Shown here piece by piece: positions 44,537 to 62,210 of a stretch of DNA of 64,000 nt. The number at the start of each line of letters is the position of its first letter. Position 1 is the stretch's first letter. Source of the DNA: Desulfobulbus sp. (GTDB lineage Bacteria; Desulfobacterota; Desulfobulbia; Desulfobulbales; Desulfobulbaceae); the NCBI GenBank assembly GCA_009778955.1, contig WRFD01000002.1:1-64000 (forward strand). The letters are read 5' to 3'. Position numbers and translations under genes: made by a program. Under the pieces are notes generated by a model that was not told where the DNA came from, made no database searches, and worked only from the letters and a program-made list of their open reading frames with translations.

Positions 44537-47176
44537 ATGGAACAGAGCAGCTTGCAATCTATCATAGTGTTAATATTGATTCTAACTGGACAGTATTATC
44601 TGATCATTGGAATTTTTGCATTTAAGCAAGATGTTAAATCAAGAATCAGACAAGATTACATGCTTTCAAAATTTTGTCTATATATATGGAGTACATCATA
44701 TGCAATCATGACGGTATCAAGCACACATGATTGTATGTTTGTATTTTGGTCAATAGGTTACACCGGAAGCTGTTTTTTCTTTGCAACATGGTTAGTATTT
44801 TTGGCACATCTAACCGAATTAAAATATTTTTATAACAAAAAAAATATTATTTTTTTATACATAATTACTTTGGTGGTTTGTGTTTTAGGGATAACCTCTG
44901 GAGAGGTTTCTTTTGTAAAAACAGAATATGGAAGTCAATTTTTATATAATGACAGTCTTATTTTTAAAATTTCGTTTATATATAATACAATGCTTATTGT
45001 ATTTTTTTATATTATACAACTTTTGTGGTTATTTGGATCAAAATTTAGACGCCATAAAAAACAAGCTGTTATTTTTACAATTCTTACTATTGTGATAACT
45101 CCTTTCGGTCTTGTGTTTGACTTCGTGATGCCGACATTTTCTGATTTTACATTTTCACCGTTAACAACGGTGTTTATTTTAATAATTGCTATTCGATTTT
45201 CTATATTGTTAGAGAAAAATAAATCATTAAATATAACTGCTGAAAATGCTTCTGATATAATATTTAAATTGATAGAAATTCCCATATTTTTCCTTAGCAA
45301 TAGGGATAGTATAGTTCTTGCGAATAATTCAACAATTGATCTGCTGGGAAAAATTTCAAGAAATATAAAAAATAAAAATATTTATGATATTTTGTGTACA
45401 AACAATAATAATATAGACAGGAATCTTTTTTCTAATTGCTTTAGTCATAATTTGATAAATTTGAATATTTCTGGTGAAAATAAAATTTATGACGTGTCGC
45501 TTGATATTAAAAAAGATGATTACGGGGATGTTTTTAGTAAAATTGTTATTTTTAGAGATATAACAGATATACATAATGCTCTTGATCGTGCTATGGAGGC
45601 TAGTAGGGCAAAGGGTGATTTTCTGTCCAGAATGAGTCATGAGATGAGGACTCCATTGAATGCAATCATTGGAATGGCTAAAATTGGAATAGATAGTAAT
45701 GATAATGATAAGATGTATTATTGCCTGGGGAAGATTAATGCCTCTTCCCGGCATTTGCTTGCATTGATTAATGACATACTTGATATGTCAAAAATTGAAT
45801 CTGGAAAAATTGAAATAAATGTAGAAAAATTCAAGTTAAATAATAAAATTGAAGAGATAATAAATGTTGTTTCTGTGAAATCTGAAGAGAAAGATATCGA
45901 TTTCATGGTGGATATTGATTCATCCATCCCGGATGAACTTATTGGGGATTCGTTGAGGCTGTCACAGGTGATAACAAATCTCTTGTCAAATGCCGTTAAA
46001 TTTACCCCGGAAAAGGGCGCCATTCATCTCGACATCAAGCTTGATACTCGTATCAATGAACATGAAAGCATCATATATGTTGAAGTTTCCGACACCGGTA
46101 TAGGTATACAGTCTGACCGCATGGAAAAGCTTTTTCACGCTTTTGAGCAGGTGGACGGCAGTATAGCCCGCCGCTTTGGAGGAACGGGTCTTGGGCTGGC
46201 TATTTCCAAAAAAATCGTGGAGATGATGGGTGGGCAAATTGGAGTCAGCAGCGAATTTGAAAAAGGCAGTCGCTTCTTTTTTACAATACCGGTGAAACAC
46301 GAGCACCCGATTGACCAGCACCCACTCCCTGATCCCTTGATCTACAAAGATATACGTGTCCTGGTTGTGGATGATTCATCGGAGGTGCGCGACTATTTTT
46401 CTCGTTTCATGGGCAAATTGGGAGTGAGTTGCGATTTATTTGATAACGGGAGCGCTGCTGTTGAAAGTATTAAAAAATCAACATTACAAGATAAATTCAA
46501 TATTGTATTCGTTGATCATTTAGTTAATAAGTTGGGCGGAATAGAAATAATTCGGGAAATAAAGAACATCTCAGAAAGCGTCATCGGTGTCGTTATGGTT
46601 CCTATTCTAAAATGGAGCTTAATGGAAAAAGAATCCGCTCAATCAGGAGTGGATAAATTTATTCAAAAACCATTGATAAGCGCGTCAATCGTTAAACTTA
46701 TTAATAACATTATTAATATAGATGAGCATTATAAAAATATTGAGCACGATAACCAAGGTTCGCTGAAAGATATTTTTAAATATAACCATGTTTTATTGGT
46801 TGAAGATATTGAATTGAACAGAGAAATAGTCCAAGCGCTCCTTGAAGAAACCGGGGTTGCTATGGATTTTGCAGAAGATGGGCGGAAAGCACTGCATGTC
46901 TTCATGGAGCATCCCGCCAAGTACGACCTGATTCTCATGGATATGCAAATGCCTGTGATGGACGGTCTGGAAGCCACCAGAGAAATACGCTCGCTGAATT
47001 TGCCGAGAGCCAAGACGATTCCTATTGTGGCCATGACCGCCAATGCTTTTAAGGAAGACGTGGATGCCTGCCTTAAATCCGGCATGAATGATCACATTGG
47101 AAAACCGATAGATTTTGCCCTGTTAATTGAAAAAATGACCAAGTATCTTGCCTTGACTCACCCTGGTGAAGAATAA
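44537..47176 (+). CDS. Hybrid sensor histidine kinase with 7TM-like N-terminus and two receiver domains
   Basis: Multipass N-terminus, PAS-like region, H-box FLSRMSHEMRTPLNAIIG, N-box NLLSNAVKFT, RRFGGTGLGLAISKKIVEMMGG, REC1 VLVVDDSSEV, REC2 VLLVEDIELNREIV...LMDMQMPVMDG. Strikingly AT-rich. Confidence 0.9.
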   Translation: MEQSSLQSIIVLILILTGQYYLIIGIFAFKQDVKSRIRQDYMLSKFCLYIWSTSYAIMTVSSTHDCMFVFWSIGYTGSCFFFATWLVFLAHLTELKYFYNKKNIIFLYIITLVVCVLGITSGEVSFVKTEYGSQFLYNDSLIFKISFIYNTMLIVFFYIIQLLWLFGSKFRRHKKQAVIFTILTIVITPFGLVFDFVMPTFSDFTFSPLTTVFILIIAIRFSILLEKNKSLNITAENASDIIFKLIEIPIFFLSNRDSIVLANNSTIDLLGKISRNIKNKNIYDILCTNNNNIDRNLFSNCFSHNLINLNISGENKIYDVSLDIKKDDYGDVFSKIVIFRDITDIHNALDRAMEASRAKGDFLSRMSHEMRTPLNAIIGMAKIGIDSNDNDKMYYCLGKINASSRHLLALINDILDMSKIESGKIEINVEKFKLNNKIEEIINVVSVKSEEKDIDFMVDIDSSIPDELIGDSLRLSQVITNLLSNAVKFTPEKGAIHLDIKLDTRINEHESIIYVEVSDTGIGIQSDRMEKLFHAFEQVDGSIARRFGGTGLGLAISKKIVEMMGGQIGVSSEFEKGSRFFFTIPVKHEHPIDQHPLPDPLIYKDIRVLVVDDSSEVRDYFSRFMGKLGVSCDLFDNGSAAVESIKKSTLQDKFNIVFVDHLVNKLGGIEIIREIKNISESVIGVVMVPILKWSLMEKESAQSGVDKFIQKPLISASIVKLINNIINIDEHYKNIEHDNQGSLKDIFKYNHVLLVEDIELNREIVQALLEETGVAMDFAEDGRKALHVFMEHPAKYDLILMDMQMPVMDGLEATREIRSLNLPRAKTIPIVAMTANAFKEDVDACLKSGMNDHIGKPIDFALLIEKMTKYLALTHPGEE

Positions 47177-48409: not shown

Positions 48410-48979
48410 ATGAAGGTTTACTACGAGCAGGAACTTCGCGAGGGATCGATCTTTGCAGTGGCAAGGAAAATGATGACTGCGGCGCGGACCGCCCCGAAGG
48501 CCAAGGGGGTGGACAATCTGGTTATCGCCCTGCTGAAGAGGGGCGGCATCGTCGAGGTGTCCGACACCCTCAAGACAATGGCGCGGCGGGATAAGCTGCC
48601 CGATTTTTTCCTGCGGGACGCGGTCAACATCCTCTCGGCCCAGGCACTAGTCGTGTTTGGCACCAAAATCTTGCCGGTGGGGCTGGACCACTGCGGTATG
48701 TGTGGCTTTGCCGATTGCGCGGAGAAGAACAAGCACCCGAATCATCCCTGCGTGTTCAATACCGGCGATCTCGGGATCGCCATGGGTTCCGCCGCCAGCG
48801 TGGCCATGGACCACAGGGTCGACAACCGCATCATGTATACGGTCGGGCGGGCGGTGTTGGAAATGGGGATCCTCGGCGAGGAGGTCAGGATCGTGTACGG
48901 CATGCCCCTGAGCGCCAGCGGCAAGAATCCGTTCATGGACAGGGACAATGACGCCCTGGTCAAGCTTGCCGGGCAGTGA
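48410..48979 (+). CDS. DUF2148 (ferredoxin-domain-containing) protein
   Basis: ARTAPKAKGVDNLVIALL; LDHCGMCGFADCAEKNKHPNHPCVFNTGDLGIAMGSA Cys-rich motif. Confidence 0.8.
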   Translation: MKVYYEQELREGSIFAVARKMMTAARTAPKAKGVDNLVIALLKRGGIVEVSDTLKTMARRDKLPDFFLRDAVNILSAQALVVFGTKILPVGLDHCGMCGFADCAEKNKHPNHPCVFNTGDLGIAMGSAASVAMDHRVDNRIMYTVGRAVLEMGILGEEVRIVYGMPLSASGKNPFMDRDNDALVKLAGQ

Positions 48980-49113: not shown

Positions 49114-50748
49114 TTATGACTCCTGGCCGCGCACGCGGATTTGGGCGATGAAATCGGCCAGATTGGCCTGGATTTTTCCTGTCTGCTGCACCAGAGCGGC
49201 GATCTTCTCGCTGACCAGCCGGGCAGCCTGGCCGGTGGCGTCGGTGGCCATGACGACATCGTTCAGGCTACGGGAAACCCCCGAAGTCTCCATTGCGACC
49301 GACTGCGTGCTCTTGGTGATCTCGTCACTGGTGTTATGCTGCTGCGACACCGCCAGCTCGATTTCCTTGGAGATGGCGTTGATCTTCTCCAAGGTGGCGT
49401 TGATCGAGCCGATGGACTGCACGGAATCCCTGGTCGCGCCTTGGATGTTCCGGATTTGGTCCGATATCCTAGCGGTCGACTGCTTGGTCTGGTCGGCCAG
49501 ATCCTTCACTTCCGAGGCCACCACCGCAAAGCCCTTGCCGGCTTCGCCTGCCCGGGCGGCCTCGATGGTGGCGTTGAGGGCGAGCAGGTCGGTTTGTTCG
49601 GCGATCTCGGAGATGATGGAAATGATGGCCTCGATCTCCTTGGCGTTGGCGTTCAATCGGTCGACGACCTCGCCGGTGCTCCTTATGGCGTCGACCGCGC
49701 TGGCCGAGACCGTGGAGGCCTCCAGCACCTTGTCGTTGATATCGTTGGTTGTGGTGTTCATTTCCTCAATTGCCGCCGCCACCGACTGTACGTCCGCAGC
49801 GGTGGCTTCCGAGGATTGCATGGCCTTTTCCGAAATCGTGCTGGTGTTGATGGCGGTCGTCATGACGGTCGCGACGGAATCGCCGATGCTGTTCAACTCG
49901 CCGAGGACCGCGGAGAGGGTCGAGCCGACGTTCTGTTCGAAATCGGCGGCCAGGGCCTGCATCCGCTTTTCCAGCCGGTCTTTCTCCAGGGCATTGTTCT
50001 TGAAAACCTGAATGGCGGCAGCCATCTCACCGATCTCGTCGTGCCGATGCTCGCCTGGGATGGCGATGGTAAGGTCGTTTTCCGAGAGCAGGCGCATGGT
50101 CCTGGTCATGAGCACCACAGGCTTGGTGATGGTTCTGGTCATGAAAAACAGCAGGATGCTGACAATGGCCACCAACCCGGCGCAGCCGTAGACAAACATC
50201 ATGCGCTGTTGGAGAATGGACTCGTTGAGCGGCCGCAGGTCATAGGTGAGCTGGACAATGCCCCCCAATTCATCCTGTTGCCAGTCGACATGGCACCTGA
50301 TGCAGTCGGGGTTCGACACCTGCGGGGTCACGATGAGCATGGTGTCACGGGCCGTGGTCATGAACTGCTTTTTTTCCGTCCGGGACCGGGCAAACAACTC
50401 CTTGTCCATAGTTTTGCCCCGGATCTCCTCGGTCGACTTCTGGCTGGAGGTCATATTCAGCCGCCCTTCCTTGGTGAAGAGCGCCACGTCAACGATCCCC
50501 TCAATATTGCGCTGGTTCCAGAGAATTTTCTGGAAGTTGTCCATCTGGCCCCGTTCCAGCGATCCTTTCACCGCCTCCTGTAGGGAATTGGCCAGGATCA
50601 GGACAGATTTCTGATACGAGTCGGTCAGCCGCCTGCTGAGGTAGTGGTCAAACAACATGCATCCCGCCACCAGCAAAATGATCATGGCCGGCGCGATCGA
50701 CAGCATGAATTTGGTGGTAATGCGAAGCCGCGAAAAAGAGCGTATCAT
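49114..50748 (-). CDS. Methyl-accepting chemotaxis protein with periplasmic CxxCH (c-type heme) motif
   Basis: Two TMs flanking a periplasmic domain containing [16 protein letters not shown]; canonical hairpin tip [41 protein letters not shown]. Start MIRSFSRL at 50748, ATGA overlap with the hydrogenase small subunit. Confidence 0.92.
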
Positions 50749-51677
50749 AATTTGGTCCTCGACTCTGATTCGGTTCGGTAAAAGGGGAAATCTTTGTGGA
50801 GGGCAAAGGTCGGGGCCGCGCAGCCGATACAGGGCGCATTGGCGTCGATACACCAGGTGCTGCCGCCGTTCCACCAGCGGGTGGGGCAGTCGGCAAAGGT
50901 GATGGGGCCTAGGCAGCCGAGTTTGAACAGGCACCCGAAGTCGCCCAACTTCTTAGCGAACATTTCTTCCTGGAAATAATGGTATCGAGGACAGGAGTTA
51001 TGCAGGTTCTTGCCGAAGAAGATCTTCGGCGAGCGGGATTCGGTCAGCTCCGGCAATCCGACCTTGACCAGGTGGGTGATGGTGTGCCAGACCCAGTCCG
51101 GATGCGTCGGACAACCGGGGATGGTGATGAGGAGCTTGTCGATGTGTCGTTGCGCCAGGAAAGCAGGCACGCTCATCGAACCGGTTGGGTTGCCCTCGGC
51201 CGACGGGATGCCGCCAAAGGAGGCACAGGTGCCGATGGCGATGATGCCGGCGGCGGTCTTGGCGCCTGCCGCTACATATTCGCCAAACGGCTTGGAGCCG
51301 ATCATGCACGCTTCCGGCATGCCGGCCGGGATGGCGCCCTCGATCGCCAGGTAGTATTCACCGTCCTTGCCGCTTATGAACGAATCGATCAAGGCCAGGG
51401 CTTGCTGGCCGGAGATGGCCGACAGGTCGGAATGAAAGCTCAGGTTAGAATAGGTGGTGATGGAGGACAGGGGCGAGATGGTGGCAGTCTGGAGCAGCGA
51501 GATCGAGCAGCCGGTGCAGGACAACCCCTGCAAATAGATGATTTTTGGCGCCGTATCGGCCGTGATTGGGAGCAGGGCCGCCCGAATCGGCTCAGGCAGA
51601 GTGGAAAGCCCGAACGTTGTTCCTAAAGCGGCGGCAAGTTGCAGGGCCTGCCGCCGATTGATCTTGATCTCATTCAT
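50745..51677 (-). CDS. [NiFe] hydrogenase small subunit, Tat-type signal, no C-terminal TM helix
   Basis: [71 protein letters not shown]...[41 protein letters not shown]. Ends ...[12 protein letters not shown]. Confidence 0.93.
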
Positions 51678-51688
51678 ATAAGCTCCTG

Positions 51689-53203
51689 TCAGTGCACGGC
51701 GCAGGCCAGGCAGGGATCGAAGGAATGAATCACCCGGAGCGATTCCAGCTGTTCTTCTGGAGAGGCGACGTGCAAGCCGATCAGGGCCGACTCCAGTGGC
51801 CCCGGCACTTCCTGGCCATCCCGTGGCGAGCAATTCCAGGTGGTGGGAACCACGCACTCGTATTTTTCAATCACCCCGTTGCGCAGCCGCAGGTAGTGGA
51901 GCAGCGCGCCGCGCGAGGCCTCGGTCAGGCCGAATCCCTCGCCGGTGGCCGGAATCTTGTATGCGGCCATGGTTGGCTGGCCTGGCGTCAGCTGTTCGCA
52001 GGCCTCAAGCAGGTAGTCGGCGATGATCGCGGCGCTGATGCCCCGGCTGAGATGGCGGCCCAGCACGGAGTTGAGCTGAAAGATCGAAAGGTTGAGTTTT
52101 TTCAGGTAGCGGTCGACCGCCTCCCGGACTCGCTGGTCCTCGGAATGATGATAGGAGACTATGAGCCGGGCCGCAGGGCCGACTTCCGCCACCTGGCCCT
52201 CGTAGCGCGGGGCCTTGATCCAGGAATATCCCCGGGACGGGTCGGGAACAAGGGCGCCGGCGATCGCCACTCTTTCCGGCCCTTGGGAGACATAGCGCGA
52301 ATAGGCGGTTTCTTCGGTGATCGCGTTGCAGTCGAAGGGGGCGGCCGTGGCCTTCTGGTTGGCGACGTATCCCGAGGAAAAAAGGCGCGTGCCGTCCTGT
52401 TGCGGACCAAGGGGAAACAGGCCGGCCGACAGGAACCCGCCCTTTGAGGCCCCAATGTTCCAATAGGCGGGATACAGGGAGGCAATGGCTATAATGTCGG
52501 GGAGATAGGTGTCGTGGATGAAGCCCCGGACCTCCTCGATGATGGTTTTGTAGGCGAGGAGCAGGTCGATCCGGGCCTCCTGAGTGCATCCTCCCGGAAA
52601 AACCGAGGTGGCATGGGGAAACTTGCCGCCGAAAATCGCTGAGGCCTGGTTGCTTTTCTTTTGGATTTCCAAGGCTATGAGATAGTTCTTCAGCGCACCG
52701 ATACTGATGTCGGCGTTCTCGACATAATCGCCGCTCAGACGGGGCAGGAAAGGGGCCGCGGCATGGGCCTTGCCGGTGGCCAGCCTGGCTTTGACCCAAT
52801 CCCGCAGGTGCATGAGGTCGCGATCCTTGCCTGTATACTTGAGGATGGCAGTGACGTCGATGAAATCGATGGCGCTCAATTGATAGAAGTTGAGCAGGTG
52901 GTCGTAGATGTGGTTGGCCCCCTGAATCAGGTTTTGCAAAATTCTGCCGTTGGCCGGGGCAGTGATCTTGTAGGCGGCCTCCTGCGCGTAGGACGAGGCC
53001 AGGGCGTGGGCATAGGGGCAGATGCCGCAGATTCTCTGGGTGATCTGTTGGGCATCCAGGGGGTGTCTTCCCTGCAGAATACGTTCAAAACCACGAAACA
53101 TCTCGCCTTCGCACTTGGCGTCGACGATGATTTTGTTCTCAACGGTTGTTTTGACGTTCAGATGGCCTTCCAGCCGGGTAACCGGCCCGAGCTCAACTTT
53201 CAT
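51689..53203 (-). CDS. [NiFe] hydrogenase large subunit lacking the C-terminal maturation extension
   Basis: MKVELGPVTRLEGHLNVK; L1 RICGICPYAHALAS; L2 DPCLACAVH immediately followed by TGA (51689-51691). Strong SD (GGAGGAGG) before the 53203 ATG. Confidence 0.93.
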   Translation of the reverse strand: MKVELGPVTRLEGHLNVKTTVENKIIVDAKCEGEMFRGFERILQGRHPLDAQQITQRICGICPYAHALASSYAQEAAYKITAPANGRILQNLIQGANHIYDHLLNFYQLSAIDFIDVTAILKYTGKDRDLMHLRDWVKARLATGKAHAAAPFLPRLSGDYVENADISIGALKNYLIALEIQKKSNQASAIFGGKFPHATSVFPGGCTQEARIDLLLAYKTIIEEVRGFIHDTYLPDIIAIASLYPAYWNIGASKGGFLSAGLFPLGPQQDGTRLFSSGYVANQKATAAPFDCNAITEETAYSRYVSQGPERVAIAGALVPDPSRGYSWIKAPRYEGQVAEVGPAARLIVSYHHSEDQRVREAVDRYLKKLNLSIFQLNSVLGRHLSRGISAAIIADYLLEACEQLTPGQPTMAAYKIPATGEGFGLTEASRGALLHYLRLRNGVIEKYECVVPTTWNCSPRDGQEVPGPLESALIGLHVASPEEQLESLRVIHSFDPCLACAVH

Positions 53204-53753: not shown

Positions 53754-56084
53754 TTAGGGCAGGAATTCGACTTCCAGGACACGGCCGGTGGTGCGGCCCT
53801 GGCTGTCGATCGCGGTCAGTTCGTAACGGCCTGAAGCGCCGGGGCGCCAGGGCAGGACTGCGTCACCCGAACTGTTGCCCAGGTAAAGGTTGTCGGCAAA
53901 CCAATACACCCGGTCACTGTCGCTTTCGATGGCGGCCGCCAGGCTGATGGTCTCTTCGGGCCGCGACAGCCGCAAGGTATACACAGTATTGGCCAACGGC
54001 GACAACAGGCGGGGCGGCTCGCCCACCACCGCGCCCGCGGTTGCAGCCAGGCAGCCGCGCTCGGCGGGGTCGGGCGGCAGCCGGCGCGGCAGCCCGGCGT
54101 CGCGAAAGAGCCGCTGGGTATCCGAGGGCCAGAACTCGAACACTTCCGTTCGGGTCAAGGCTGGATCATAGGGGGGACAGGCTGCCTCTCCGGAATCGTT
54201 CATCATCACCACCGGCCGGTGCAGGGTGGAGACGCGGATGGGCGATTTGCCCGGGATGAACCAGGTCGCCGCCGTGTGCGGGCACCAGCGGTTAGGCAGA
54301 TCGCCGGAAGCGGCGCACACTTCGACCCGGATGAGACCTGGCGGCGGCTGGACCGGCGCGGCCGCCTCATCCGCCGCAGTCAACTCCAGGGCATCGGCGA
54401 TACGAAAAAAGAGAGGGGCTGCGGCCTTGACCCCGACCAGGGCCGGATTGCCGTGGCCGTCGAAGTTGCCAAGCCAGACCGCAAGCACGTAATCGCCGAT
54501 CAGGCCGACCGACCAGGCGTCGCGAAATCCCCAGGAGGTCCCGGTTTTCCAGGCTGCTTCCCATTTATGACGGCTTCCGCGCTGGGCGGCCGGACGCGCA
54601 TTGGCGCTGAGCATGTCGCGCACCAGGAATGCCGCTTGCGGCGAAAGCAAGGGCGTGCCGCTGACGACAGGATCGGACTGGCGATAGCGGAGCGGCCGGT
54701 GCAGGCCGTTGTTGGCCAGCATGGCATACAACCCGGCCAATTCCTCCATGGTCAGTTCGCCGCCTCCGAGCACCAGCGTCAAGCCATAGTGTGATTCCGG
54801 CCGCAGCCGGGCAATGCCGGCGCTGCGGAGAAAATCGTACAGGGTCGGACTCCGTAGCCGATTGGCCAGCCAAACCGCCGGAATGTTACGACTGCGGATC
54901 AAGGCGTCCCGGGCCGGAATCGGACCGGCAAAGCGACCGTCGAAATTTTCCGGCTGAAACGGCCCGAATGCGGTGGGCGCGTCGTTGAGCACGGTCAGGG
55001 GATGAATGAGCCCCTGGTCGATCGCCAGGCCGTAAATGAACGGTTTCAGGGTGGAACCGGGCGAACGTTTGGCCAAAACGCCGTTGACCTGGCCGTCAAT
55101 GGCGCGATTGAAATATCCCGCCGAGCCTGCCAGCGCCTTGACGGCCATATCGCGCCGGTCCACCAGGAGCACCGCGCCGTTCGCCAGGCCCTGGTCCCGC
55201 CGCTCAATGATGTATTGCCGCAGGATGCGCTCGATCATGCTCTGCAAGCGGAACTCCACCGTGGCGTGGATCACCGGTTCGTCACCGGCCATGCGCAGCA
55301 GTTGATCGGTCAGGTGCGGCGCCAGAAACGGCAGGGAAAGCTGACCTGAAAAATTTTGATCCGCAAGGGTGGTGGCCGGCGTGTCCCCGGGATGTTCCTG
55401 CAGCCAGGCCGTGGCCAGTCTCTGTCTGGCCTGCTGCTGTTCCGCGGCGAAATCGAACCGCTTGGTCGGATTCTGCGGCATCACGGCCAGAGCCAGGCTT
55501 TCGGCCAGGGTGAGTTGCCCGGCCTCTTTGCCGAAATAGATTCGAGCCGCCGCTGCCACGCCCTCGATATTGCCCCCCATTGGCGCCAGGTTGCAATACG
55601 CCCTGAGCAGCTCGTTTTTGGAGTAATGGACCTCCAACTGTAGGGCGAGAACGATTTGGGTAAGCTTGCCCGCCAGTGTCCGGGTGTTGAGCCGGTGCAG
55701 CCGTCGGGCCAACTGCATGGTCAGGGTGGAGCCTCCCTGGCGCACGCCCTGGACATAGGTGGCCCAGGCGGCCCGTCCAAGGGCAAGCGGATTGACGCCC
55801 GGATGCCAGAAAAACGCCCGATCCTCCTTGAGCAGGATGGCGGCAACGGCTGTTGGCGCCACCTGCTCAAGGGGAACCAGAATCCGGTACTGCCCGTCGC
55901 CGGCCAAGGTCAGGCGTAGGACCGTGCCGTCGGCGGCCCGGATCAGCCGTGAGGCAGGAAAGAAGGCCTCAAGCGGCGGAGCGGGCAGCAGGCGCAAGAT
56001 CGCCAGCACCGACAGCGTTGCGAACGCCACCAGTGCCGACAACCGGGCAAGCCGTCCGAACCATCCGCCCCGCGCGGCTTTCAT
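53754..56084 (-). CDS. pbpC: Penicillin-binding protein 1C
   Basis: Transglycosylase KEDRAFFWHPGVNPLALGRAAW, GGSTLTMQLARRL; transpeptidase SPGSTLKPFIYGLA; KTGTSWGFRDAW; C-terminal PbpC domain. Confidence 0.92.
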   Translation of the reverse strand: MKAARGGWFGRLARLSALVAFATLSVLAILRLLPAPPLEAFFPASRLIRAADGTVLRLTLAGDGQYRILVPLEQVAPTAVAAILLKEDRAFFWHPGVNPLALGRAAWATYVQGVRQGGSTLTMQLARRLHRLNTRTLAGKLTQIVLALQLEVHYSKNELLRAYCNLAPMGGNIEGVAAAARIYFGKEAGQLTLAESLALAVMPQNPTKRFDFAAEQQQARQRLATAWLQEHPGDTPATTLADQNFSGQLSLPFLAPHLTDQLLRMAGDEPVIHATVEFRLQSMIERILRQYIIERRDQGLANGAVLLVDRRDMAVKALAGSAGYFNRAIDGQVNGVLAKRSPGSTLKPFIYGLAIDQGLIHPLTVLNDAPTAFGPFQPENFDGRFAGPIPARDALIRSRNIPAVWLANRLRSPTLYDFLRSAGIARLRPESHYGLTLVLGGGELTMEELAGLYAMLANNGLHRPLRYRQSDPVVSGTPLLSPQAAFLVRDMLSANARPAAQRGSRHKWEAAWKTGTSWGFRDAWSVGLIGDYVLAVWLGNFDGHGNPALVGVKAAAPLFFRIADALELTAADEAAAPVQPPPGLIRVEVCAASGDLPNRWCPHTAATWFIPGKSPIRVSTLHRPVVMMNDSGEAACPPYDPALTRTEVFEFWPSDTQRLFRDAGLPRRLPPDPAERGCLAATAGAVVGEPPRLLSPLANTVYTLRLSRPEETISLAAAIESDSDRVYWFADNLYLGNSSGDAVLPWRPGASGRYELTAIDSQGRTTGRVLEVEFLP

Positions 56085-59000
56085 GGTGCTGCAATGGTCA
56101 GTCTGCCACCCAGGCCGCGTCCCTGCAGTTTCCGTTCATACATGCCTTCGGCATACGGCGGCGGCGCCAAAAAGATCCCTTCGTTCGTGGCCCGGACCTG
56201 GTATGTGTAGGTGGCGACATCGTCGGTCAGGATGGCATAGAGCACCACCCGGTCATCGCGGGTATCCACGAAAGAGGGATGCCAGAGCTGTTGGGCCGAC
56301 GAATCGGGCTCATCGCCATTGGCATGCTCCTCTTCCTCCTTCGGGGTCTTGGGGCGAACGACCACGGGTTCGACTCCGCCCGGGAGCAGGTCGACAATCG
56401 CGATCTCGCCGGCGTCAGCCCTGCCGGCAATGGAGCGCAACTGGAGCCGTACTGTGAACTCCTCACCCACCTTGACCCGCTCAAGAGGTTTCCCGTCCGC
56501 GCCGATATATTCACGCAGAATTTCGAGCCCTTGCTGGAGCGTGCCGGCGGGCGGCTGGCGGTCGAATCCGGCTTCGGTCAGCTGGTAGAAAGCCGCCTGG
56601 CCTGCCTGCTCCTTACGCAAAATCACCTTGTCCCACCCTGGGGCCAAGGCGGCTTTTGGCGGCTGGCCGTGCAAGGCAAGCGGCACGAGCGCCTGCTCTG
56701 CTCCCGCTTCGACGGTCATCCGACCGCTTTGCGGCGCGATGGAACGGCCATAAAGGTCAAAGGCCCGGATCAGCAGGGCAGCGGAGAGCGAATGGTGCTG
56801 GTCCCTGGAAACCCAATCGCCTAGGGCCGGCAACAGCGCTTCGGGAATGCTCGCCAACAGCTTGGGAAAATGCCGGGCCAACAGGGTCAGGAGCTCGGCG
56901 TCATGGCACAGGGCGTCGCCATACAGCCCGCCCTGAGCGGCGATTTCCGCCAGCGTTTGGGCCGCGGTGGCGGTGACGCTCCAGGGCACTCCGGCAATCA
57001 GTTTCTCCGCTTCCCGTTGCTGCTTCAACAGGGCCTGGCTGGCCGCCAGGTAGGCGGCGGCCAGATCGGCGCGCCAAACCTGGCGATGGTGCCGTTCCAA
57101 CTGCTCCAGAGTCGCCGCCAGGGGACCGCTGGTGACCTTGCCCTGGCGGGTGAGCAGATAGATGGCGCGGGCCTTGGTCCGCAATTCCTCCATGCCCTCT
57201 GCCGGCCCGTTAGCGATCTTCTCCAGGTACGCGCGTCCCTGGCGATCGAGATCGGCGGGAACAGGGACGCCGCGCTCACGGGCTTCGAGCAGAAAGTCAA
57301 CGGCGTAGACTGATGTTTCCGGCTGGACCGAAAGGTTGCTGGCCCACTGCCCGAAGCCGCCCATCTCGTTTTGCCGTTGTCGGAGCATGGCAAAGGCGGT
57401 CTGCAACGGCTTGAAATCCGGGCGGACCACCTCTTCCGGCCGCGCCATGATCAAAGTTGGCATGGCCTTGGAGATCAGTTGTTCGGTGCAGCTGTACGGG
57501 TAGTGTTCCAGGTAGGCGCTCAGTCCCTGGACCCAGACCAGGGGCGAGCGGTCATACCCTATCTCGACCGTGCGGTATTCGTTATGCAGATCGCGCTGCC
57601 GGGGGAGGCTCAGGGCTTGATCCGTGAACAGCCCGGTCCGCAATGCGACCCGGTAGGGAGTTGCCGGCCGGACCGAGGCGCTCTCGTGGATTCGCGCCGC
57701 ACCTTCCCCGCTTTCGGCGGTGAACGTCAGCTCAGTGGAGCCGAGTTGGTCTGTGGCGCGCAAATGGAAGCGGGCAACGCCTTCACGGCCGGGCGCCACC
57801 TCCAGTTGTTGGATGGCGGGTTCGGTCACGGTGAGGCCAGGGCCTGTTTCCAGACGAATTCGCACCTGGCTTTCCTGGCGCAGATTGCTGAAAGCGCCGA
57901 CCGAGATCGAGAATTCATCGCCAGGGGCGACAAATGCCGGCACGTTGGGCGTCAGCACCCAGGGGCCACGCACCTCGGTGTTGCCTTCGAAAACGCCAAT
58001 CCGGGACGGGGTCACCGCCACGGCAACAATCCGCAGACGCCCGTTGAACCCTTCGGGCACGGCATACTCGAAATCGCGGCCGCCAGCCGGCACCTGCACG
58101 ATCCCGGACCAGTAGGCCACCGGCGGCTGGCGCTTGCGCTTGAACGGATTGAGATGCGCCCCGATTTCGTCTTCCCCGTCGCCGCCGGGAGCGGCCGCTG
58201 CCAACAGACGGCTGTATTCGGGCAGGATGAGGCTGAGAATCTGGGATGTCTGCACATTGAGCATCCGTTTTCTGAAAAAGTGGCCGAGCGGGTCCGGCGT
58301 CTTGTAGCGCGCCACCTGGAGGATGCCCTCGTCAACCGCGAGCACCACCGCCCTGGCCGCCTCTTTCGATGCCAGATGCAGCCGCAGGGTTTGACCCGGT
58401 TCGATATGTTCCGGAGGATTCAAGGTCAGCGGCAAGGTGCGAGCATCCAGCGACACGCTGAACGGAGCGGCCCCGGAAGAGAGGGGACTCATGAAGACTT
58501 CCGGTGAATTGGGATCGCGCACGAACTGGACATTGACATAGCCGTTGCCTTCCAATTCCTTGGGAACCGTGATGGTCTGCACGCTGGATGTGGTCGTGGT
58601 CTTGAACCAGGCGTGCGCATACACCCGGTCGCGCTCGATGGTAATCAGGCCGGCGCCGGTATAGGGGGCGCGCAGACTGATGTGAATCTTCTCGCCCGGC
58701 GCGTAGCTGGCCTTATCGAGCTTGATCTGCAACTCCGCGTTGCGCTCCAGCGAACGACTGAGATTGGCGGCCCCGGCAACGGTCCAGCGGATGCGGTTGA
58801 GCACCGTGCCGCCGGAATCGCGGACCTCATAGGCGAAATCGCCGGGCTCGGTGGTGGGCAATGCACTGTCCTTTCCTGTATTGTCAAGTGAAAACGGCTG
58901 GATATCCCGCTCGATCTCCTTGCGTCGCGACTCGTACTTATAGGTGCCGTCCGACTGTTTGACCAGCACGGAAAGGTAGCGGTATTCGACCAGGGCGAGC

Positions 59001-61873
59001 CGCAGGTTTTCAACCGCCACAGGCTGCAGATCGGGTCCCACCGCCAGCCACCGACACGAACGGGCCGCGCCCTTGGCCACATAGTCCAAGGCGTCCCGGC
59101 TGCTCACCCCGATCAGATACGGCGCGGAGGAAACCAGCGCCTCCTCTGCCGCCGCGACGTTGCGTCCGCCTTCCGCTTCATAGACCTGGGCGGTCACCCG
59201 CAGGCGATAGGTCGCCTGGGCAAAACGCTTCAGGTCGAGCTGCAGTTCGGCAACGCCTGCATCCGAAGTCCGGGTTTCGGGCAGTCTGTCCTCCGTCCCC
59301 TCCTTGAGCACGCCTTCCACATGGAACCGATAGCCAGGGTGCTGCTTGAAGGCTGGCAGGGCAGGGGTCATCCGTATCTGGCCGGTCACCCGACGGTTAG
59401 TGGCGGCAGTGCCAAACAGGTGCCGGGCCACGACCAGGGCCTTGACGTTTTCCGGTTGTAGCCACCCGATGGGTTTGGGCTCGGCCAGGCTGACCGCCAC
59501 ATTCATCCGGTCCGGCTCGAAATCTCCCACCGTGAACTCCGTTCCCCCGATCCAGACGCCGCGTCTGTTCTCCTGGATCAGGTACACGGAAACGGAATAC
59601 GCCCCAGCCGGGGCGACCTCGCCGACGGTGAAGTCGATCCCGTCAAATCCGCTCTCTGGGCATTTTCTCCGTTGATTCCAGACGGTCGTGCCGCGTGGAT
59701 CGGTGATCTCCAATTCCACCGGCATGCCCTCAATGCGGGTGTTCCAATCGGCGGCGCGCAGAATGGAGCCGATGTGAACCGTCTCTCCGGGGCGATACAG
59801 GCCGCGATCGGTAAAAAGCGCGGCGGAAATCTGGTTTGGGCTCTGCGCGTTTTCCGCGCCGCCGATGTCGAAACGGGTGAGATCCACCGCGTGTTCGCCG
59901 CGGCCCAAGGGGAGAAAGGACAAGTCGTTTTGCAGGCTGGCAACCAGAGCGATCGGCTTTTTCTCGCGCCGCAGGTCGGCCATGCCGGGAAAACGGGCAT
60001 GGCCCTGTTCGTCGGTGTAGGTTTCGGCCACGGCCAGGCCGTTGCGGCCGATAATTTCAACCTTGGCGCCAGCGACCGGCGCGCCGCTGGCGATGGACTG
60101 CACGAACACCTCTTGCCCGCCATCCAGGGTCCGCTTGCTGATCAGTCCCAGATCTGTCACCAGGATGAACCGCCGGTCGCCATGCTCCAGGCTGTCCGGA
60201 TAGTCGTTGTATTCCCGCTTGGGATTGTTGGGATCAAACGGGGTGATGTGCAGGACAAAAATCCCCCGCCGGCCGCCATTGGCATTGAGGTAAGTGCTGA
60301 TATCGATGAAGTCGTACAGCGGTTTGGCCTCGTTGGCCTGGGTGAAAATCCGAGTGTATTCCATGCGCTCCACCAGGCGGTCGAAAATGGCGCCATAGAC
60401 CGAGGGCTGGGCGAACTGGTTGTAATTCTGGTCGATAATCTGGTGCAACTGGCCGGGAAGCACCCGGGCGATCTCGACCTTCACTCCAGACATACCCTGG
60501 GCGAGGAAACCCACCCGCTTCTCGCCGTTTAAACCCAGCAGCGCTCCTTCTCCCAGGAATTTGAGTATCTTGGGATATTCGCCGGTGTCCAGCAGGGCTG
60601 TCACCGGATTTTTTGAGAGGTAACCCCCTGCCGCTTCGATTTTTTCGTCAATCTTGACCACAATCTGCCGGTTAACCGGCGCCCGGAAGGCGAACCCGTG
60701 GTGGGTGTTCAAAGGCTCGGCTCCGGGGATCTGGCGGAGCGCCAGGGGTTGGGCCTGCTTGAACTCTTCCTCGTTCACCGTGGACGGGGTCCATCGCCTG
60801 TTTTTGCCCCTTTCGGGCAAAAGCCAGGCATGTACCTGTTTGCCGATCGCCTCGTCCCGAACCGGGAACGAGCTGTCGAACATCAGCACCTGTTCGGGCT
60901 CACCCTGTTGATTGTTGACATACCGCACCGCCAGGTCGGTAAAGGTCAGTTGATAGAGGCCGGGGACGCTGACCGCGCGCTCGATGGGCTGGTCGGTCCG
61001 GTTGCCGCCTTTGGCCGCGCCGATGCCCTTGTCCAGGACGAGGGTGATCGGGCTTGATTCCAGCGGCACGGCCAGCGGAGCGGAGTGGATGTAGGCGTGC
61101 GTTCCGGTGGCGTCGACGGTCATGGTCCACGGCTCCCTGTTCCGGTCGCGGAACCTGAGGCCATCCGCCAGCTTCAGACTGATTACCCGCCGCAGGCTCG
61201 CCTCGTCGACCGGATGGGAGAAGTTGACGGTTGCCACCAGCTTTTTCAAGGTGTTGTCCACTGGGTCCTGATAGAGTTCGCCGGCCGCGATTGCGGCGGT
61301 AAAAGGGGCGGCACTGAAGGTTACCCGATAGTTGGCCAACAGGATGCCGGGCGCGAAGAAATCGTCCTGGGAAAAACTTAAGCTATAGGCTTGTCCGATC
61401 GGCCAGTCTCCTTCGGGCTTGAATTCGAGGGTGCGATCATCGGACCAGCGCCATGCGCCGGATAAGGGCGGCTCCAGGCGAAGCCCGGTGACCACCGGTT
61501 TGCCCACCAGAGCCAGCGGGGCGACTGATTGGGCAAAAACGACGCGTAGCGGCGCGACCACGATCGGCGATTGTTCGTACCGGGTCAATGCGGGCACGTT
61601 CACCCGGTAGGCAACCGTGCGCGGAACGGGTCTGTGGCTGTACCACTGCCAGCCGTACCAGCCGCCGCCGGCCATGGCCATTGCGGCAAGCAGCAGGATG
61701 CCCGCTGGCAGGGGATTGCGCCTGAACCAGGCGCCACAGCGCGCAAGCATCCGGCCCACCCAGGGCAGCCAAGGGGGCGGCTGCCAGTTGAATCGTCCGA
61801 AAAGAGCGACCAGAAAATGGGATGCCAGGCGAAGCAATCCGACAACGGGAGCGAAAAGGGGAGTGATTTTCAT
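56081..61873 (-). CDS. Bacterial alpha-2-macroglobulin family protein with thioester motif, N-terminal TM anchor
   Basis: Very large ORF with MG-domain features (LYRPGETVHIGSILR, YPYSCTEQLISKAMP thioester CxEQ); N-terminal hydrophobic segment GILLLAAMAMAGGGWYGW; overlaps pbpC by 4 nt. Confidence 0.88.
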   Translation of the reverse strand: MKITPLFAPVVGLLRLASHFLVALFGRFNWQPPPWLPWVGRMLARCGAWFRRNPLPAGILLLAAMAMAGGGWYGWQWYSHRPVPRTVAYRVNVPALTRYEQSPIVVAPLRVVFAQSVAPLALVGKPVVTGLRLEPPLSGAWRWSDDRTLEFKPEGDWPIGQAYSLSFSQDDFFAPGILLANYRVTFSAAPFTAAIAAGELYQDPVDNTLKKLVATVNFSHPVDEASLRRVISLKLADGLRFRDRNREPWTMTVDATGTHAYIHSAPLAVPLESSPITLVLDKGIGAAKGGNRTDQPIERAVSVPGLYQLTFTDLAVRYVNNQQGEPEQVLMFDSSFPVRDEAIGKQVHAWLLPERGKNRRWTPSTVNEEEFKQAQPLALRQIPGAEPLNTHHGFAFRAPVNRQIVVKIDEKIEAAGGYLSKNPVTALLDTGEYPKILKFLGEGALLGLNGEKRVGFLAQGMSGVKVEIARVLPGQLHQIIDQNYNQFAQPSVYGAIFDRLVERMEYTRIFTQANEAKPLYDFIDISTYLNANGGRRGIFVLHITPFDPNNPKREYNDYPDSLEHGDRRFILVTDLGLISKRTLDGGQEVFVQSIASGAPVAGAKVEIIGRNGLAVAETYTDEQGHARFPGMADLRREKKPIALVASLQNDLSFLPLGRGEHAVDLTRFDIGGAENAQSPNQISAALFTDRGLYRPGETVHIGSILRAADWNTRIEGMPVELEITDPRGTTVWNQRRKCPESGFDGIDFTVGEVAPAGAYSVSVYLIQENRRGVWIGGTEFTVGDFEPDRMNVAVSLAEPKPIGWLQPENVKALVVARHLFGTAATNRRVTGQIRMTPALPAFKQHPGYRFHVEGVLKEGTEDRLPETRTSDAGVAELQLDLKRFAQATYRLRVTAQVYEAEGGRNVAAAEEALVSSAPYLIGVSSRDALDYVAKGAARSCRWLAVGPDLQPVAVENLRLALVEYRYLSVLVKQSDGTYKYESRRKEIERDIQPFSLDNTGKDSALPTTEPGDFAYEVRDSGGTVLNRIRWTVAGAANLSRSLERNAELQIKLDKASYAPGEKIHISLRAPYTGAGLITIERDRVYAHAWFKTTTTSSVQTITVPKELEGNGYVNVQFVRDPNSPEVFMSPLSSGAAPFSVSLDARTLPLTLNPPEHIEPGQTLRLHLASKEAARAVVLAVDEGILQVARYKTPDPLGHFFRKRMLNVQTSQILSLILPEYSRLLAAAAPGGDGEDEIGAHLNPFKRKRQPPVAYWSGIVQVPAGGRDFEYAVPEGFNGRLRIVAVAVTPSRIGVFEGNTEVRGPWVLTPNVPAFVAPGDEFSISVGAFSNLRQESQVRIRLETGPGLTVTEPAIQQLEVAPGREGVARFHLRATDQLGSTELTFTAESGEGAARIHESASVRPATPYRVALRTGLFTDQALSLPRQRDLHNEYRTVEIGYDRSPLVWVQGLSAYLEHYPYSCTEQLISKAMPTLIMARPEEVVRPDFKPLQTAFAMLRQRQNEMGGFGQWASNLSVQPETSVYAVDFLLEARERGVPVPADLDRQGRAYLEKIANGPAEGMEELRTKARAIYLLTRQGKVTSGPLAATLEQLERHHRQVWRADLAAAYLAASQALLKQQREAEKLIAGVPWSVTATAAQTLAEIAAQGGLYGDALCHDAELLTLLARHFPKLLASIPEALLPALGDWVSRDQHHSLSAALLIRAFDLYGRSIAPQSGRMTVEAGAEQALVPLALHGQPPKAALAPGWDKVILRKEQAGQAAFYQLTEAGFDRQPPAGTLQQGLEILREYIGADGKPLERVKVGEEFTVRLQLRSIAGRADAGEIAIVDLLPGGVEPVVVRPKTPKEEEEHANGDEPDSSAQQLWHPSFVDTRDDRVVLYAILTDDVATYTYQVRATNEGIFLAPPPYAEGMYERKLQGRGLGGRLTIAAP

Positions 61874-62210
61874 GGGATGCCGATCAGGGGGAAAGGGATG
61901 GAGGCGCCGGGTGTCGCACGGCCCGGCACGACAGGGGTATGCCGACATGGTACAAATATAGCCGAAAAGTCGCAATGTTCCTCATGCACGACACGCTCCA
62001 GGCCGGCGCCGACGAGGTGATGCCCATTGATCTGAAGGCTTGCTTGCCGGCGTGCCGGAGCATGCCTTCCTGGTCCATGGCGAGGAAACGGCCATGCAGG
62101 TCCCTGCGGGCCAACTCACGGGCGCCGCTCCTGGTCTTTTCCCGTATGGCCAAGGATTCGATTTTCAAAGTTCCCTTGGCCGAGCCTGATCACAACAAGT
62201 TGTTTCAATT

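What the first reader, a model, noticed from the sequence alone, without database searches (positions are those of the whole stretch)
51689..51715. Hydrogenase large subunit stops exactly at the DPCxxCxxH histidine
The ORF reads ...SFDPCLACAVH* with TGA immediately after His. Most group 1 uptake hydrogenases carry a C-terminal extension removed by a specific endopeptidase after this His. Absence of the extension is a hallmark of H2-sensing regulatory hydrogenases (HupUV/HoxBC) and a few others. Finding it in a Tat-exported enzyme next to an MCP supports a sensory role and protease-independent maturation.
Basis: partly seen in the sequence, partly recalled or inferred. Interest (0 to 1): 0.75.

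Follow-up and report, generated by a model that had tools for sequence, protein, structure and literature searches.

The report
Hydrogenase wired to a chemotaxis receptor
A hydrogen-splitting enzyme in a sulfate-reducing bacterium ends where it would normally carry a removable tail, and across its relatives every tail-less enzyme followed by enough sequence is encoded with a heme-bearing chemotaxis receptor or kinase, which suggests an overlooked class of hydrogen sensors that steer bacterial movement.

Summary
In detail: the [NiFe] hydrogenase large subunit (LSU) ends ...SFDPCLACAVH-TGA at 51689, with the small-subunit ATG 11 bases on. It is not an error. Forty LSU loci of this phylum, the window's included, stop at the same His, with TGA or TAA stops.

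Extension-less LSUs form one lineage near group 1 hydrogenases. Its gene order is LSU, then Tat small subunit, then a membrane transducer whose periplasmic domain carries a heme-c motif. A transducer followed in 38 of 38 evaluable extension-less loci, and in none of 43 extension-bearing loci. A HyaD-type protease gene lay nearby in 0 of 32 extension-less and 36 of 43 extension-bearing loci. Most transducers are chemoreceptors (MCPs); the others are a diheme kinase followed by a CheX-like gene. The window's MCP start overlaps the small-subunit stop (ATGA).

Best explanation: a periplasmic H2 sensor. H2 electrons pass through three [4Fe-4S] clusters to the transducer heme and control chemotaxis. 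Electron transfer, heme attachment and taxis are inferred.

New variant of a known kind.

The parts
51689..53203 (-). [NiFe] hydrogenase large subunit, 504 aa, no C-terminal extension
   Evidence: PF00374 E 3e-140; Ni ligands C59, C62, C498, C501 and E12, R431, D496 conserved in all 31 extension-less and 43 extension-bearing sequences aligned; GGAGG just upstream of the ATG
51689..51691 (-). TGA stop directly after the DPCxxCxxH histidine
   Evidence: same end in 40 loci of the lineage
50745..51677 (-). Tat-type hydrogenase small subunit, 310 aa, short C-terminal tail with no membrane anchor
   Evidence: TIGR00391 202 bits against cut-off 179.5, PF14720 and PF01058; best solved relatives are [NiFeSe] small subunits
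51651..51656 (-). twin-arginine codons of the small-subunit signal (NRRQALQ)
50850..50852 (-). Cys276 of the small subunit ([12 protein letters not shown]) at the medial cluster, where most [NiFe] enzymes have Pro; predicts a [4Fe-4S] medial cluster
   Evidence: position derived from the translation
49114..50748 (-). methyl-accepting chemotaxis protein, 544 aa: TM, periplasmic heme-c sensor domain, TM, HAMP, MCP signalling domain; start overlaps the small-subunit stop (ATGA)
   Evidence: PF00015 1e-29 and PF00672 3e-9; start and overlap
50290..50304 (-). heme-c motif CIRCH (residues 149-153) in the periplasmic domain
   Evidence: C149, C152 and H153 are invariant in 25 aligned sensor domains
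50542..50544 (-). Met69 of the MCP, invariant, candidate switchable axial heme ligand (inferred by analogy with GSU0582/GSU0935)
   Evidence: analogy from PMC8396549

Best explanation
The three genes encode one H2-sensing chemoreceptor complex. Shown from sequence: a hydrogenase with all catalytic residues and no cleavable LSU tail; a Tat small subunit with ligands for three clusters, a Cys at the medial one, and no anchor; and an MCP whose periplasmic domain has a heme-c motif, in a tight operon conserved as a unit. Inferred: the LSU is matured by the Hyp proteins without a protease, the heterodimer is exported by Tat, and it docks on the receptor. Electrons from H2 would run from NiFe through the proximal, medial and distal clusters to the receptor heme. 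The heme redox state (perhaps with release or binding of Met69) would change the receptor and so the CheA kinase, making the cell move along H2 gradients. In a sister subclade the output is a diheme Hpt/HATPase kinase followed by a CheX-like gene.
For: Transducer next to 38/38 evaluable extension-less LSUs against 0/43 extension-bearing ones. The extension-less loci span 16 family-level groups, down to 40% identity to the window LSU. HyaD-type protease gene nearby in 0/32 extension-less and 36/43 extension-bearing loci. Gene order LSU-SSU-transducer, Tat motif and medial Cys in the extension-less loci. Converse test in 194 genomes of the order: of 46 strong sensor-domain matches, 43 lie beside such an LSU on the same contig and one more (G451) beside a truncated one. 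Transducer outputs: MCP in 28 of the 32 survey loci, kinase in 3, none seen in one cut by a contig end. Cys, Cys and His of the heme motif and Met69 invariant in 25 sensor domains. Catalytic residues intact. AF2 sensor model pLDDT 90.5; Foldseek finds Cache/PDC-type sensors and heme-c sensor GSU0935. CheA-like protein and HypD present in the genome. GSU0582/GSU0935 are c-heme MCP sensors at -156/-251 mV (PMC8396549).
Against: No experiment. The extension-less LSUs may be one clade, so the perfect association can reflect one origin with long retention, not many independent events. The sequence link of the sensor domain to GSU0582 is weak (PF21563 21 bits against a cut-off of 27; PDB 3b47 E=0.38), and TM-scores to GSU0935 are low (0.27/0.41). 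Complex formation and electron transfer were not modelled. The RH gas-channel Phe is absent (Leu in all).
Confidence: 0.77

Rival explanations
1. An ordinary periplasmic uptake (or evolving) hydrogenase that feeds the soluble cytochrome c pool, with an MCP that senses periplasmic redox in general; operon linkage but no direct wiring.
For: The active site is intact, sulfate reducers often have periplasmic hydrogenases (general knowledge), and DcrA-type c-heme MCPs sense redox or oxygen (PMC8396549).
Against: No cytochrome or membrane acceptor subunit in the operon; one-to-one transducer linkage over 16 family-level groups and two output types; almost no strong sensor-domain copies away from these LSUs.
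Confidence: 0.17
2. A member of the HupUV/HoxBC regulatory hydrogenases (group 2b).
For: No extension, medial Cys, and transducer coupling as in 2b; the window LSU shares the Ile at the first gas-channel position.
Against: A joint clade with 2b is rejected (lnL 52 worse, AU p=0.0096); group 2 separates with support 100; Tat signal; heme-c transducer; only 34% identity to HoxC.
Confidence: 0.02
3. The stop is a nonsense mutation or an assembly error.
For: None found.
Against: Same end in 40 loci from independent assemblies, with different stop codons; no remnant extension downstream, and the small-subunit start is 11 bases away.
Confidence: 0.005
4. A hydrogenase-gated receptor whose real input is oxygen or inhibitor-induced inactivation, with H2 only as the standing reductant.
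For: [NiFe] active sites react with O2 (general knowledge), and DcrA senses oxygen or redox (PMC8396549).
Against: It does not explain why an H2-cleaving module is needed when a c-heme MCP alone can sense redox. Not tested here.
Confidence: 0.035

Closest known systems
Regulatory [NiFe] hydrogenase HoxBC/HupUV with HoxJ kinase (group 2b)
   Same: No C-terminal extension; three [4Fe-4S] clusters (predicted here; measured for RH in PMC5665086); hydrogenase coupled to a signal transducer
   Different: 2b is cytoplasmic with a histidine kinase partner and controls transcription; here Tat-exported, heme-c transmembrane MCP or kinase, different clade
Group 1 periplasmic [NiFe]/[NiFeSe] hydrogenases (e.g. 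D. fructosovorans, Dm. baculatum)
   Same: Overall LSU and SSU sequence, Tat small subunit, active-site residues; medial Cys as in NiFeSe
   Different: The 43 comparison LSUs have an extension; 36 have a protease gene nearby and most have order SSU-LSU; none has the heme sensor domain
c-type heme MCPs of Geobacter (GSU0582, GSU0935) and DcrA of D. vulgaris
   Same: Periplasmic sensor domain of related type with a CxxCH heme motif, MCP output
   Different: The review read here does not mention hydrogen or hydrogenase coupling; sequence similarity is below family cut-offs
[FeFe] hydrogenase group C2 (putative chemotactic)
   Same: Hydrogenase proposed to act through MCPs (HydDB, PMC5037454)
   Different: Unrelated hydrogenase type

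Membership tests
[NiFe] hydrogenase, group 1-like | PF00374 LSU with RxCxxC and DPCxxCxxH motifs and an intact active site | tested here: met
[NiFe] hydrogenase, group 1-like | Tat small subunit with C-terminal domain PF14720 | tested here: met
[NiFe] hydrogenase, group 1-like | C-terminal extension with cognate endopeptidase (usual in the group) | tested here: not met
[NiFe] hydrogenase, group 1-like | assignment to a HydDB subgroup (1a to 1k) | not testable with these tools
   HydDB not available; its 2016 table has no sensory group 1 class
Regulatory hydrogenase, group 2b | phylogenetic position with HoxC/HupV | tested here: not met
   AU p=0.0096
Regulatory hydrogenase, group 2b | no C-terminal extension | tested here: met
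Regulatory hydrogenase, group 2b | cytoplasmic small subunit without Tat signal, with a histidine kinase partner | tested here: not met
   Tat motif and MCP partner in the window
Regulatory hydrogenase, group 2b | narrow gas channel Ile/Phe | tested here: not met
   Ile in three Desulfobulbus-type sequences only, Leu not Phe in all
c-type heme MCP (GSU0582/GSU0935 type) | periplasmic Cache/PAS-like domain with CxxCH | tested here: met
c-type heme MCP (GSU0582/GSU0935 type) | significant sequence match to PF21563 | tested here: inconclusive
   21.2 bits, cut-off 27; 3b47 E=0.38
c-type heme MCP (GSU0582/GSU0935 type) | heme actually bound | not testable with these tools
   needs protein work

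The most novel reading that the evidence does not exclude
A lineage of group 1-like [NiFe] hydrogenases has become the input module of dedicated periplasmic H2 chemoreceptors (and of a Hpt-type kinase with CheX), passing electrons from H2 straight to a heme c in the receptor: a sensory class separate from HupUV/HoxBC, found in at least 16 family-level groups of one phylum.
Probability: 0.68. Interest if true: 0.85.

Novelty: new variant of a known kind. Interest (0 to 1): 0.78.

Why it matters
How bacteria find H2, a major currency of anoxic sediments, is poorly known. My searches of open-access papers found no receptor described for H2 taxis in bacteria, and HydDB lists only a putative [FeFe] chemotactic class. 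If right, this gives a concrete receptor with a simple readout (heme reduction by H2). It would also mean that genome surveys which count every group 1-like LSU as H2 respiration miscount these loci as metabolism, and it adds a natural extension-less group 1-like set for studying why most hydrogenases need a cleavable tail.

Tried and rejected
Hidden extension by readthrough or frameshift: rejected. Chance proximity of an MCP: rejected; two extension-bearing loci (L084, L086) have an MCP, but without a heme-c sensor domain and beyond a Hyb-type operon with its own protease. Membership in 2b: rejected. Independent losses of the extension inside group 1: not needed; one clade fits at least as well, so I do not claim independent events. 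AF2 of the LSU: mean pLDDT 57.9, not used. One paper search failed on a term that was too short, one alignment call on a coordinate slip, and one script on a motif that missed DSC in Roseovarius (rerun). Spread outside the phylum could not be tested: the one genome-collection scan, with patterns from the window LSU alone, found only two relatives. Among strong sensor-domain matches in the order, one (L159, G458) has no hydrogenase within the 9 kb read and one (G509) is a short fragment without a listed LSU.

Full report
OBSERVATION. The large subunit (LSU) gene runs 53203 to 51689 on the minus strand and ends DPCLACAVH-TGA. The small subunit (SSU) begins 11 bases after the stop, at 51677, and the MCP begins at 50748 with its ATG overlapping the SSU stop (ATGA). 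The reading is exact and no extension is hidden downstream.

CONSERVATION. A MAG named Desulfobulbus sp. holds the nearest copy (91%). In 56 relatives, 11 full-length LSUs at 60-91% identity were found besides the window's own; the ten cut out first all stop after the His, with TGA or TAA, and the eleventh (L037) does too. Only 3 of 24 genomes placed in the window's genus, the window's included, carry the gene, so it is patchy.

SURVEY. From 395 genomes of the phylum and the relatives I cut out LSU loci with flanks and scored them: 32 have no extension and 43 have extensions of 14-17 residues. A heme-c sensor domain follows in 31 of the 32 and in none of the 43; the exception (L090) is cut by a contig end. 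A further eight extension-less loci were checked: seven have the transducer and one (L162) is cut. Evaluable total 38/38 against 0/43. Caveat: for two extension-bearing loci under 700 bases of downstream sequence were held, and about 1 kb upstream was seen for most. A Fisher test that leaves those two out (38/0 against 0/41) gives p of about 2e-23, but the rows are related, so this is not a probability of independent events.

PROTEASE. A profile made from HyaD, HybD, HoxM and two proteases of this phylum (L086, L087) finds a protease gene in 36 of 43 extension-bearing stretches and in 0 of 32 extension-less ones (the two L086/L087 seeds match by construction). The window's genome has two HycI-family proteases elsewhere and other hydrogenases with extensions, so the protease was not lost from the cell.

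ANATOMY. Extension-less loci have the order LSU-SSU-transducer; extension-bearing loci are mostly SSU-LSU. The extension-less SSUs have a Tat motif, a short tail, and Cys at the medial-cluster position, as in NiFeSe enzymes; some extension-bearing SSUs share that Cys, so it is not diagnostic. RH has three [4Fe-4S] clusters, which its authors link to streamlined electron transfer (PMC5665086). All catalytic residues checked are conserved.

TRANSDUCER. Most are MCPs. In one subclade (L042, L043, L088, L153-L158) it is a diheme protein of about 780 residues; those read in full are kinases with HATPase and, in L042, a sub-threshold Hpt match, followed by a CheX-like gene (the profile match was run for L042 only). 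Genomes G038, G049 and G287 hold both kinds, and each LSU groups with LSUs of its own transducer kind, so the cassette appears to be inherited as a unit. In 25 sensor domains the invariant residues are G67, M69, F72, L90, C149, C152 and H153. The AF2 model of the window's sensor domain is confident (90.5); its fold neighbours are Cache/PDC-type sensors and the heme-c sensor GSU0935. GSU0582/GSU0935 have potentials of -156 and -251 mV and are thought to switch on heme oxidation with loss of an axial Met (PMC8396549). M69 as such a ligand here is my inference.

CONVERSE TEST. In 194 genomes of the order the sensor profile hits 40 genomes and the LSU hits 43. By my comparison of coordinates, of 46 sensor matches at E of 1e-18 or better (a match split over two frames counted once), 43 lie beside such an LSU on the same contig. 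The three others are G451 (at a contig start; a truncated extension-less LSU is present), G509 (a short fragment) and G458:C49 (L159, no hydrogenase in the 9 kb read).

PHYLOGENY. Extension-less and extension-bearing LSUs lie on two sides of one weak branch. With group 2 added, group 2 separates with support 100 and the extension-less set is not resolved as one or two clades; holding it as one clade gives a slightly better tree, and joining it with 2b is rejected (p=0.0096). A group 2 LSU from Roseovarius has an extension, unlike 2b. The lack of an extension in 2b and here therefore need not share an origin; the root is not settled.

MECHANISM. Shown: parts list, operon structure, conservation and association. 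Inferred: export as a heterodimer, docking, electron flow from H2 to heme, and control of CheA. The genome holds a CheA-like protein and HypD. Direction of taxis is unknown.

KNOWN OR NEW. PMC7294309 names naturally extension-less hydrogenases in groups 2b, 2d, 4c, 4e and 4g, none in group 1. HydDB's table has no sensory group 1 class. My searches of the open library found no report of this cassette; subscription papers and preprints were not covered.

Noticed in passing
G000 contig C182, loci L002 and L007: A second hydrogenase LSU in the same genome reads AYDP-TGA-ISCATH, a TGA in place of the first L2 Cys with a 25-residue tail after the His: probably a selenocysteine-containing hydrogenase of the cofactor-coupled kind.
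   Followed up: no
L042, L043, L088, L153-L158: Sister hydrogenase cassettes end in a diheme transmembrane kinase (HATPase, Hpt-like) and a CheX-like gene in place of an MCP.
   Followed up: partly
L159 (G458 contig C49): A heme-c sensor-domain MCP of the same family with no hydrogenase within the 9 kb read; it may use another electron donor.
   Followed up: partly
L092 and L094: Deep-branching extension-less hydrogenases with MCPs whose sensor has ALKKGNM/SLRKGNM in place of SLERGQM.
   Followed up: partly
window 53754-61975 (-): Upstream of the operon lie two adjoining large ORFs that look like penicillin-binding protein 1C and an alpha-2-macroglobulin-like protein (by eye, not searched).
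   Followed up: no
window 48410-48979 (+): Convergent gene for a DUF2148 ferredoxin-domain protein (PF09918).
   Followed up: no
window 44537-47176 (+): Large hybrid histidine kinase with an N-terminal membrane region and two receiver-like domains (by eye, not searched).
   Followed up: no
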